A DNA stretch of 64,000 nt from Pseudocercospora fijiensis CIRAD86 (lineage: Eukaryota > Ascomycota > Dothideomycetes > Mycosphaerellales > Mycosphaerellaceae): the NCBI RefSeq assembly GCF_000340215.1, contig NW_006921538.1, forward strand, positions 3,908,936-3,972,935, written 5' to 3'. This document shows positions 17,869 through 62,005 of the stretch, in pieces (positions within the stretch are counted from its first letter, which is position 1; the number at the start of each line of letters is the position of its first letter). Made by a program: the position numbers and the translations under genes. Under the pieces are notes generated by a model that ran no database searches, was not told where the DNA came from, and saw only the letters and a program-made list of their open reading frames with translations.

Positions 17869-20682
17869 TCACCATTCAAACTCATCATACGTCGCCACCC
17901 CAAATTCATCTCCGCGTCCCGAAGTCGAGCCGTGATTCTTCGGCCCAATCGCAGCGAACAAATGGTTGCCATGCTTCTTCAACGCCATCCCCAGACCGCC
18001 GAGATTAATCAAATGCAGTTCCGTCGACCCCAATGAGAACGGCCAGCTCCTGCTCCCAATCTTCACCTTACGGCCCTCCACATCAATCTCAATCGATTCT
18101 CCGTCTTCCGCAACCCGGTAAAAATCTTCGTCCGTGATCGTGATGGCTAGCATGCCGATGTTGGGCATATTGCGCGCGAAGATGTAGGCGAGCGATTTGG
18201 CGATGACACACTTCACCCCGAGACCTGGGGGAGATTTGTTAGTACCACTCCGCTAGAAGATCTTTTGCTGCGGTGCTGGGCCTCACCTTTCAACGCTCGA
18301 GGAGCTTCTTCTCGCGAGGAGCCACAGCCGAAAGCCTTGCCTGCAACCACCACGGCAGAACCTGATCGGACAGCATGGCGGAAATCGGGATGGGCGAATT
18401 CAAAGCAGTGGTTGCCCAGGTCTTCGTCGCTAGGGCTGTTGATGCACGCAGCGGCTGGAATAATCTGTCAAGAGAAATCACAGTGGTCAGTTCAACTTTT
18501 CTTTTTTTTTCCTTTTTGGACGCCGTGCGTACCGCGTCGGTATCAACGTAGTCGCCCATCCGAAAAATACGACTCTCGATTTTCTCCAGCGTCTGTTTGG
18601 CAGCACCGTTGCCATTCGTCTCAAGAGGAGGAGCAGGAACGCTCCCAGCATCAGTACAGAGAAGCGGCTCGGTGTAGGTTGGCTTCGTCACATTTTCTGC
18701 CACCGGCTTGCCGATTCTTCGCTTGGTTGGGGTTACGCGAGCGAGATAAGTCAGATACTTCTCCTCGGAGACATGTTCTAGAATATCCTTGGGATTGGTC
18801 AATGTCATTGAGAAGGACGAGGCAGCCGCCGTTGCTGCTGAACAGATGTGGCCAATCGCTCCTAAGATGTCTGTCAGTAAAGGAACGCTACGAAAGAGGA
18901 AGCAAGATCAGCAGCATACGCACCTTTGCCCATCCTGTTCTTGAAATTTCTGTTCTGAGAGGACAGCCAGCGTGTTCCCGACTCGGCTACATCAGCTCCA
19001 ATGCCGAGACAAAGGCTACAAGCCGGCGCAGGCTGTTCCCAGCCACAGCGAGTGAATATCTCCAACAGTCCTAGTTTTCGCAAGTTGTGGACAATCGGTA
19101 AGCTTCCGGGGACCATAACTCGCTTTCCTGGTGCCATCGTTAAGCCCATAGCAAGACCTGCTTCAAGAACTAGGGCTGCTAACACTAGATCCTCCTCGGT
19201 GGTGGTGCAGGCTCCAATGAAGATACCATCAAAAGGCATACCGAGCTGCGACGTGACCGGCTCCACCTGGTCGGGAGAAGGGTACAGAGCAATATATGGC
19301 TCCACTTGTGACAGGTCAATCACGAATTTCTCTTCATAGGGTGCATCGGTGTCGGCTGTGAAATATATCGAGTTGGATTTGTAGAAGCTTGCTTTCCTGC
19401 CCTTGACAAAGTTTTGGACGATTGAATCGGGTTCAAAGATGCCTGTGATGGCGCCAAGCTCCTGAATGGACAATCAGAAGAAGAAGAACCCATGAATTAT
19501 GTGTGCGGGACAGCCGACACGTACCGTACACATATTGGAGATTGCAAAACGAGCATCACACGACAAGGCTGCTATGCCCGGCCCGCCGAACTCAACGACC
19601 CTGTCTGCAGCATGTGTGTTCCGTTTCAGCTGGCGCAGAATATCGAGGACGATGTCCTTGCCGCCAACGTACCACAGCGGCTGACCGACAAAATCGATTC
19701 TGATACATTCCGGGACCTTGAGCCAAGTCTCACCCGTAGCCAACGCTGCCATTACGTCGGCAGCTCCCAGACCGATTGCCAAAGCACTCACGGCACCTGC
19801 AGAACAGGTGTGCGAGTCGGATCCAAGAACCAGCATTCCGGGCTCTGCTCGCTCTCGCACGAACTCGGTGTGGAGAATCGTGTACTGGCATACACAGTCA
19901 GCATGGCAGCTTTCTTCGTCGAATTCAGAGTCGGCGGACATTAGATCCTTGATTCTCCGTCATCTTCAAATCCTTTCTCGCCTCCTCAAGGCCATGCATC
20001 AGATCGCGGACACGCTTTTGCTCGTAAATTCTTGGGTCGACGGCGTGGTCGCCGGCCAACCAGAAGCGATCGTTGCGCCAGGCTCGAGGCCTCATGTTTA
20101 AGCTCGTCACGCTGTGCTTCATGCCAACCCATGACAACTCGCTCGCAATGACCCAGTCGACGGAAACGCGCAGGAAATCTCCGACGTTGACGCCGTGGGC
20201 ATCTTCGACCGAGAGCGCATGGTGGGCAAGAATTTTTGCCGCGAGCGTCATGGGTCGGCGGCCTTCTGGTTTGTCTAGAAGGGGTTTCGGCAGTGGTCTG
20301 GTGCTTTCTCGCGATTTCATTGCTGCCAGCCACGCTTCGGTGAGGCACACAACGCGGTCCAGTGTTGCCGCGTCGACAGCGCTCCAGGGAAGATCGGAGA
20401 TGCCGAGCCCTCCCAGCTCGACATCGGCATTGCAGAGATCCAGGACATGGCGGATTGTTTGCTCCTCGGCGAAGTAGCCGTTGGTATTGAGCTCAGAGGC
20501 CAGCCAGGCAATGGAGCCCACAACGTCTGAGGGTGGCGCAGAACCTCATAGTGGTCAGCTTGAGACCCGCTGGCGTGTATGGAATTCTTACAAGAGTCGG
20601 CAGGACCCAGTGTGATACCACGAGTCTCACGAAGTATATCCTGCAGCCTGGAGATAAATGTATCGTGAGTGATTGCAATCAT
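17869..20682 (-). CDS. aconitase-like isopropylmalate isomerase, fused subunits
   Basis: Seven exons (20682-20592, 20526-19940, 19884-19525, 19461-18924, 18861-18533, 18464-18287, 18224-17869), 812 residues, all introns GT-AG and 55-68 bp. The large-subunit domain spans about residues 1-530. Fe-S ligands are Cys431 (GACTTTE), Cys494 and Cys497 (PACSLC). LGSDSHTC and MTLAAKILAHHA are also conserved. The small-subunit (swivel) domain follows, with GDYVDTDAIIPA and GCGSSREEAPRAL. The family moves a hydroxyl group in 2-alkylmalates through an alkene, the second step of keto-acid elongation. Housekeeping fungal isomerases read GSSREHAP, whereas this one has Glu for His, as I recall for secondary-metabolite relatives such as the echinocandin htyD type. 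The clustering with the synthase and dehydrogenase supports a pathway-specific role. Start chosen at the first in-frame ATG, 20682. Confidence 0.92.

Positions 20683-62005: not shown

What the first reader, a model, noticed from the sequence alone, without database searches (positions are those of the whole stretch)
17869..62005. Cluster pairing keto-acid elongation enzymes with a D-2-hydroxyacid dehydrogenase and a synthetase, with no aminotransferase
Echinocandin clusters carry an IPMS-, aconitase- and IPMDH-like set plus a transaminase to make L-homotyrosine. Here the same three elongation steps are present, no aminotransferase is seen, and a D-2-hydroxyacid dehydrogenase is. The simplest reading is that the elongated keto acid is reduced to a D-2-hydroxy acid used by the synthetase, giving a cyclodepsipeptide. 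I do not recognise this gene set.
Basis: partly seen in the sequence, partly recalled or inferred. Interest (0 to 1): 0.88.

Follow-up and report, generated by a model that had tools for sequence, protein, structure and literature searches.

The report
Fungal depsipeptide cluster with keto-acid elongation
A gene cluster in the banana black Sigatoka fungus seems to lengthen an aromatic keto acid, reduce it to a hydroxy acid and use that as the first unit of a seven-module cyclic depsipeptide; the cluster itself has been reported before, but I found no paper proposing this chemistry for it.

Summary
Window 17869-62005 carries eight contiguous intact gene models: aconitase, IPMS, D-2-hydroxyacid dehydrogenase (D-HADH), two P450s, IPMDH, ABC transporter and one 8395-aa NRPS. 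No aminotransferase was found in 124 kb. The genome is Pseudocercospora fijiensis CIRAD86. Two results support a depsipeptide with an aromatic starter. The first adenylation domain (A1) has Gly where amino-acid-activating domains have Asp235, as in enniatin's hydroxy-acid domain. The IPMS carries the htyA/gloH-type pocket, so it probably lengthens an aromatic keto acid. D-HADH and IPMS have consecutive gene tags in Cercospora zeina. The NRPS reads as one starter plus three dimodules and a terminal condensation domain; A6 looks dead. Best reading: the lengthened aryl keto acid is reduced to a D-2-hydroxy acid, loaded by A1, and its hydroxyl closes the ring. That the elongated keto acid is the one reduced is inferred; in AM-toxin, the closest known pathway, a different keto acid is reduced and the elongated one is transaminated. 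The cluster is not new: Noar and Daub (2016, PMC5006380) reported a matching cluster and its higher expression in infected leaf, without a product. Verdict: real, new variant of a known kind, moderate interest.

The parts
17869..20682 (-). Aconitase/isopropylmalate-isomerase-like gene, 7 exons, 818 aa
   Evidence: Spliced model without stops; PF00330 and PF00694
21413..22936 (-). 2-isopropylmalate-synthase-like gene, 2 exons, 486 aa; no PF08502 match; htyA/gloH-type pocket
   Evidence: public model MYCFIDRAFT_190022
24134..25234 (+). D-2-hydroxyacid dehydrogenase, single exon, 366 aa; Arg278, Glu309 and His328 invariant in 16 aligned rows (their catalytic role is recalled)
   Evidence: PF02826; alignment; best NCBIfam match the Haloferax D-2-hydroxyacid dehydrogenase model, below its cut-off
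25451..27206 (-). Cytochrome P450 a, 5 exons, 502 aa
   Evidence: Model and 37.8% identity over 495 aa to P450b; no Pfam match for exon 1 alone
27820..29265 (+). 3-isopropylmalate-dehydrogenase-like gene, 6 exons, 377 aa
   Evidence: PF00180; TIGR00169 above its cut-off
29298..30992 (-). Cytochrome P450 b, 4 exons, 507 aa
   Evidence: PF00067
31551..35530 (+). ABC transporter with two ATPase stretches, 2 exons, 1308 aa
   Evidence: Model; PF00005 and PF00664 on its main frame
36536..62005 (+). NRPS, 6 exons, 8395 aa: partial C - A1-T1 - C2-A2-T2-E2 - C3-A3-T3 - C4-A4-T4 - C5-A5-T5 - C6-A6-T6 - C7-A7-T7 - CT (partial C and E2 assigned by motif reading)
   Evidence: public partial model MYCFIDRAFT_93876
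37283..39025 (+). A1, starter adenylation domain, 10-residue code GAGAVAASIK (Gly for Asp235; Gln for the Pro of YGPTE)

Best explanation
This is a biosynthetic cluster for an exported cyclic depsipeptide. IPMS, aconitase and IPMDH add one carbon to an aromatic 2-keto acid (phenylpyruvate or 4-hydroxyphenylpyruvate), giving a 2-oxo-4-arylbutanoate. The D-2-hydroxyacid dehydrogenase reduces this to the D-2-hydroxy acid. NRPS module 1 activates it as starter; six further modules add amino acids (the first of them made D by E2); the terminal C domain joins the starter hydroxyl to the C-terminal carboxyl, making the single ester. P450s tailor the product and the ABC transporter exports it. Shown by sequence: gene content, intact frames, domain order, A1 without Asp235, IPMS pocket type, no aminotransferase found nearby. 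Inferred: substrate identities, number of elongation rounds, that the elongated keto acid is the one reduced, ring size, ester position, tailoring and export. A6 lacks part of its ATP loop and the A10 lysine, so T6 is probably loaded by another A domain, or module 6 is skipped.
For: A1 code GAGAVAASIK against Asp235 in A2-A7; the Gly also faces that Asp in the alignment to linear gramicidin synthetase. Of 632 A-domain stretches matched in 121 NRPS sequences (this one included), 568 have Asp at this position, 42 Ala and 5 Gly; two of those five are this protein. A review states that the two hydroxy-acid-activating examples it discusses carry Gly (EnSynA1) or Ala (engineered TycA) here (PMC11253843, passages). 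IPMS pocket positions 167/216/217/250/252/254 are F/G/F/A/A/S; htyA has F/G/M/G/A/S, gloH F/G/F/G/A/S, LEU4-type H/S/P/N/P/T. The tree puts it in a 46-row clade (SH-aLRT 95) that also holds htyA and gloH and not the LEU4-type rows. C. zeina IPMS BST61_g3903 (74%) and D-HADH g3904 (78%) have consecutive tags; both genes also appear on a contig of 54,929 bases in an unnamed source. No aminotransferase found. P. musae A1 has a tighter pocket, GAVVVGVTVK, and no P. musae D-HADH is among the 120 listed of 1819 hits. Cluster genes are reported higher in infected leaf (PMC5006380, passages).
Against: No enzyme assay or product exists. AM-toxin, the closest characterised pathway, uses the same three elongation enzymes for an amino acid and reduces a different keto acid. 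The only biochemically studied enzyme of the DDH group prefers unbranched 4-5 carbon chains (PMC6303947, section 14). A1 also has Gln at the Pro of YGPTE, which I take to be the position that is Met in the keto-acid domain StsA, so a keto acid is not excluded. Fungal A-domain codes predict substrates poorly (recalled). P. musae has a Gly235 A1 and a neighbouring IPMS without a D-HADH found, so the three need not go together.
Confidence: 0.55

Rival explanations
1. AM-toxin-like split: the elongated aryl keto acid is transaminated by a housekeeping enzyme to a homo-aromatic amino acid used by a later module, while D-HADH reduces another keto acid (for example 2-ketoisovalerate or 2-ketoisocaproate) for A1.
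For: This is the proposed logic of AM-toxin, AMT7/8/6/5 plus AMT2 (PMC8102738, passages). P. musae has an IPMS with the tag next to a homologous NRPS with a Gly235 A1, but no D-HADH of that species is among the 120 listed hits. The genome has nine PF00155 and six PF01063 matches elsewhere.
Against: AM-toxin and the AM-toxin-like Zymoseptoria tritici cluster have an aminotransferase in the cluster (PMC8102738 and PMC5561558, passages); here none was found in 124 kb. The A1 pocket looks open (Gly239, Ala278, Ala322), more than a branched-chain unit needs (inference). D-HADH pairs with IPMS in C. zeina and an unnamed source.
Confidence: 0.27
2. The elongated chain is aliphatic (for example from 2-ketoisocaproate), giving a longer-chain aliphatic D-hydroxy acid.
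For: The studied DDH-group enzyme prefers short unbranched aliphatic keto acids.
Against: The IPMS pocket type matches enzymes proposed to act on aryl pyruvates.
Confidence: 0.1
3. A1 activates the keto acid itself and reduction happens on the enzyme.
For: Gln replaces the Pro of YGPTE, taken as the position that is Met in the keto-acid domain StsA.
Against: No ketoreductase domain was matched in the NRPS; the only reductase seen is free-standing.
Confidence: 0.05

Closest known systems
AM-toxin cluster of Alternaria alternata apple pathotype (AMT genes) and the AM-toxin-like cluster of Zymoseptoria tritici
   Same: IPMS (AMT7), aconitase (AMT8), IPMDH (AMT6) and NRPS; in AM-toxin a depsipeptide with one hydroxy acid, and an NRPS whose last module lacks an A domain (PMC8102738, PMC5561558, passages).
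   Different: AMT clusters carry aminotransferase AMT5; in AM-toxin AMT2 makes the hydroxy acid from 2-ketoisovalerate and the ring has four units. Here: D-HADH, no aminotransferase found, seven modules.
L-homotyrosine pathway of echinocandin/pneumocandin clusters (htyA, gloH and partners)
   Same: Same three elongation steps (PMC7778625, passages); same IPMS pocket type and the same clade of the tree.
   Different: Ends in transamination to L-homotyrosine; the echinocandin products are acylated hexapeptides, not depsipeptides with a hydroxy-acid starter.
Hydroxy-acid-first fungal synthetases (enniatin, beauvericin, bassianolide; destruxin synthetase as nearest characterised relative named by PMC5006380)
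   Same: First A domain takes a hydroxy acid (PMC3688495, passage) and, in enniatin, carries Gly for Asp235; free-standing keto-acid reductase and closure by a terminal C domain are recalled.
   Different: Their hydroxy acids come from primary branched-chain metabolism without clustered elongation enzymes (recalled).
Pseudocercospora musae AC579_9092/9093
   Same: NRPS 43% identical over 4963 aligned columns, same A2 and A3 codes, Gly235 in A1, IPMS with the next tag.
   Different: A1 pocket smaller; no P. musae D-HADH among the 120 listed of 1819 hits; the gene model ends inside C5.

Membership tests
AM-toxin (AMT) type cluster | IPMS, aconitase and IPMDH beside an NRPS | tested here: met
AM-toxin (AMT) type cluster | Clustered aminotransferase (AMT5) | tested here: not met
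   AMT5 itself was not used as query
AM-toxin (AMT) type cluster | Ketoisovalerate reductase AMT2 homologue | not tested
   AMT2 sequence not fetched; the only reductase seen is the PF02826 one
Echinocandin homotyrosine cassette | IPMS, aconitase and IPMDH with the htyA/gloH-type IPMS pocket | tested here: met
Echinocandin homotyrosine cassette | Clustered transaminase | tested here: not met
Hydroxy-acid-first cyclodepsipeptide synthetase | First A domain lacking Asp235 | tested here: met
   Gly
Hydroxy-acid-first cyclodepsipeptide synthetase | Terminal C domain | tested here: met
   PF00668 match at the end of the protein, SHAQYDG motif; cyclisation itself not tested
Hydroxy-acid-first cyclodepsipeptide synthetase | Hydroxy acid activated and ester in product | not testable with these tools
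   Needs an assay or a product
D-2-hydroxyacid dehydrogenase family | PF02826 and Arg/Glu/His set | tested here: met
D-2-hydroxyacid dehydrogenase, DDH group | Placement with Haloferax DDH rather than other groups | tested here: inconclusive
   Best NCBIfam match but below its cut-off; Haloferax enzyme second in the PDB search; no tree made

The most novel reading that the evidence does not exclude
A natural coupling that my paper searches did not turn up: an alpha-keto-acid elongation cassette of the homotyrosine type whose output is diverted from transamination to D-reduction, so that a D-2-hydroxy-4-arylbutanoate starts a seven-module synthetase and closes a new cyclodepsipeptide, from genes reported to be more active in infected banana leaf.
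Probability: 0.5. Interest if true: 0.65.

Novelty: new variant of a known kind. Interest (0 to 1): 0.5.

Why it matters
The product of a cluster reported to be more highly expressed in infected banana leaf than in medium is unknown. A concrete prediction (a hydroxy-aryl starter, one ester, six or seven units, one D-residue) makes it searchable by mass spectrometry. If right, it shows how one elongation cassette can be switched from amino-acid to hydroxy-acid supply by exchanging one enzyme and one A-domain pocket, with the P. musae relative as a natural comparison.

Tried and rejected
Rejected: pseudogene or frameshift in the NRPS. Frame changes and in-frame stops at 48.7, 51.8, 52.7, 54.0 and 58.5 kb are explained by five GT..AG introns of 51-62 bases.

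Rejected: that this IPMS is the primary leucine enzyme. A copy on contig 2 scores far higher against a Fusarium 2-isopropylmalate synthase of the LEU4 type (P0216; 809 against 357 bits).

Led nowhere: NRPS genes on contigs 1 and 12 of this genome are not close relatives (A1 at most 33%). For C. zeina and the unnamed contig only the proteins returned by the searches were seen, so their NRPS A1 is unknown. AMT1 was not fetched. No structure prediction was run. PMC3268274 (destruxin) is not held, so destruxin details are recalled. Searches aimed at the combined chemistry were judged by their listings: one search found 0 papers; 'isopropylmalate' was absent from all 7 papers listed (of 8) and 'isopropylmalate synthase' from all 15 listed (of 37); two searches listed 2 and 3 papers, none on this by title.

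Full report
What is there. The window is G000:C7:3908936-3972935 of a 74 Mb, 30-contig genome. The IPMS matches MYCFIDRAFT_190022 (99%) and the NRPS the partial model MYCFIDRAFT_93876 (100%) of Pseudocercospora fijiensis CIRAD86. Eight genes lie side by side from 17869 to 62005. Their models have GT..AG introns (the D-HADH has none) and no internal stops. They encode aconitase (818 aa), IPMS (486 aa), D-2-hydroxyacid dehydrogenase (366 aa), P450a (502 aa), IPMDH (377 aa), P450b (507 aa), ABC transporter (1308 aa) and an NRPS (8395 aa). To the right the DNA drops to 42-47% GC; no open frame of 120 aa or more lies in the first 10 kb beyond the window except across a masked stretch, and none of 150 aa or more in the next 10 kb. 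To the left lie frames with HET, F-box (weak) and hydrolase matches.

No aminotransferase found. PF00155 and PF01063 give 9 and 6 matches genome-wide, the only one on contig 7 being 1.7 Mb away; the scans are intron-blind and score only the best candidates. With these 15 segments as queries, tblastn found nothing in the window and 30 kb either side, while two control segments were found. Pfam scans of 20 open frames (12 from the window left of the cluster, 8 of the 10 listed in L010 and L011) found none. The masked 1056 bases cannot be judged.

The synthetase. Pfam and motifs give seven A domains, seven T domains and a terminal C; a partial N-terminal C and one E domain after module 2 are my motif reading. 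C2/C4/C6 resemble each other (40-44%), and so do C3/C5/C7 (36-40%), with 21-27% between the sets. A2/A4/A6 (42-46%) and A3/A5/A7 (39-49%) alternate in the same way, less sharply (35-38% between sets). So the enzyme reads as a starter module plus three dimodules. Codes (code columns placed by motif, positions as listed in PMC11253843): A1 GAGAVAASIK, A2 DMHNEGFAIK, A3 DAQVVCGIVK, A4 DVSHSITVVK, A5 DGMFLGVIIK, A6 DMHTGTLAIT, A7 DGMFVGVVIK. A6 lost part of the ATP loop and the A10 Lys, so it is probably inactive. AMT1 is described as lacking an A domain in its last module (PMC8102738, passage), so loading from another A domain has a parallel.

A1 is probably not an amino-acid domain. Asp235, which holds the amino group, is Gly in A1 and Asp in A2-A7, and the same Gly faces that Asp in the alignment to linear gramicidin synthetase. 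In 632 A-domain stretches from 121 NRPS sequences, this one included, 568 have Asp, 42 Ala and 5 Gly; two of the five are this protein, the others P0316 (P. musae), P0270 and P0280. The sequences were picked by likeness to residues 1-900 of this NRPS, so the sample is not neutral. The review PMC11253843 (passages only) says that the hydroxy-acid A domains it discusses carry Gly (EnSynA1) or Ala here; it also cites McyG, which activates Phe with Val at this position, so loss of the Asp alone is not proof. It says that the keto-acid domain StsA has Met for a conserved Pro; I take this to be the Pro of YGPTE, which is Gln in A1, so a keto acid cannot be excluded by sequence, but no ketoreductase domain was matched.

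The elongation enzymes. Against M. tuberculosis LeuA numbering (alignment; the pocket role of these residues is recalled), the IPMS has F/G/F/A/A/S at 167/216/217/250/252/254. htyA has F/G/M/G/A/S, gloH F/G/F/G/A/S, a P. fuligena protein named AMT7 L/G/Y/C/A/S, and LEU4-type enzymes such as P0216 H/S/P/N/P/T; 120 rows, this one included, were compared. A tree of 74 of these 120 (SH-aLRT only, midpoint root) pairs it with C. zeina g3903 (99), in a 23-row group (100) with the AMT7-named and Zymoseptoria proteins; htyA and gloH are in a 19-row group (100) of the same 46-row clade (95), the LEU4-type rows outside it. Like htyA and gloH it has no PF08502 match. Proposed pathways lengthen 4-hydroxyphenylpyruvate in echinocandins (PMC7778625, passages) and, twice, a tyrosine-derived keto acid in AM-toxin (PMC8102738, passages; biochemical proof is said there to be lacking). 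An aromatic substrate is therefore the best guess; one or two rounds cannot be told.

The reductase. The D-HADH has PF02826 and the Arg278/Glu309/His328 set, invariant in 16 aligned rows (the catalytic role is recalled). Its best NCBIfam match (136.6 bits, cut-off 400) and second PDB match are the Haloferax enzyme, a broad 2-keto-acid reductase of the DDH group, which also includes fungi. There, small loop residues would allow large hydrophobic substrates, though the studied enzyme prefers unbranched 4-5 carbon chains (PMC6303947, section 14). Elsewhere in this genome the nearest relative found is 44% identical.

Conservation. C. zeina has IPMS BST61_g3903 and D-HADH BST61_g3904, consecutive tags on a contig of one length (4.95 Mb); an unnamed source has both genes on a contig of 54,929 bases. 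In one unnamed protein that I read (P0125) IPMS-like sequence runs on into aconitase-like sequence, so that adjacency recurs too; P0126 and P0133 are similarly long but were not read. P. musae has IPMS AC579_9093 and NRPS AC579_9092, 43% identical, with the same A2 and A3 codes and a Gly235 A1, but a tighter A1 pocket (GAVVVGVTVK); no P. musae D-HADH is among the 120 listed of 1819 hits. One comparison of this kind is suggestive only.

What is in print. Noar and Daub (PMC5006380; passages) report a cluster on scaffold 7 of this species: NRPS, ABC transporter, two P450s, IPMDH, a glyoxylate/hydroxypyruvate reductase, IPMS and IPM dehydratase, higher in infected leaf than in medium. I match it to this window by species and gene list; its coordinates and fold changes were not seen. 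They note homologues in two related banana pathogens and a destruxin synthetase as nearest characterised relative, and leave the product open. The passages seen do not propose keto-acid elongation or a hydroxy-acid starter. A 2022 review repeats the NRPS result (PMC9002641, passages). My searches for the chemistry listed nothing on it, within an open-licence library only.

Conclusion. The gene set is confirmed and no aminotransferase was found; a hydroxy-acid starter and a cyclic depsipeptide are well supported but not proved; an aromatic elongated unit is likely; that this unit is the one reduced is the most economical reading, against which the AM-toxin analogy stands. The finding is a new variant of a known kind.

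Noticed in passing
55511-57046 (A6, NRPS residues about 6249-6760): A6 has lost four residues of the ATP-binding loop and the A10 lysine, while C6 and T6 keep their motifs; probably a dead adenylation domain in a working module.
   Followed up: partly
36536-62005: NRPS looks built by duplication of a dimodule; only the first copy keeps an E domain although C3, C5 and C7 are of one type.
   Followed up: partly
36536-62005, public model MYCFIDRAFT_93876: The public protein (6685 aa, partial) starts 183 residues later than this model and is shorter.
   Followed up: no
P0156 and P0160: C. zeina has a second IPMS-like protein (BST61_g4390) pairing with a Zymoseptoria one, so it may hold two clusters of this kind.
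   Followed up: no
L008-L009 (20 kb right of the window): AT-rich, apparently gene-empty DNA directly after the NRPS, with one masked stretch.
   Followed up: no
13541-14386: Open frame with a heterokaryon incompatibility (HET) domain left of the cluster.
   Followed up: no
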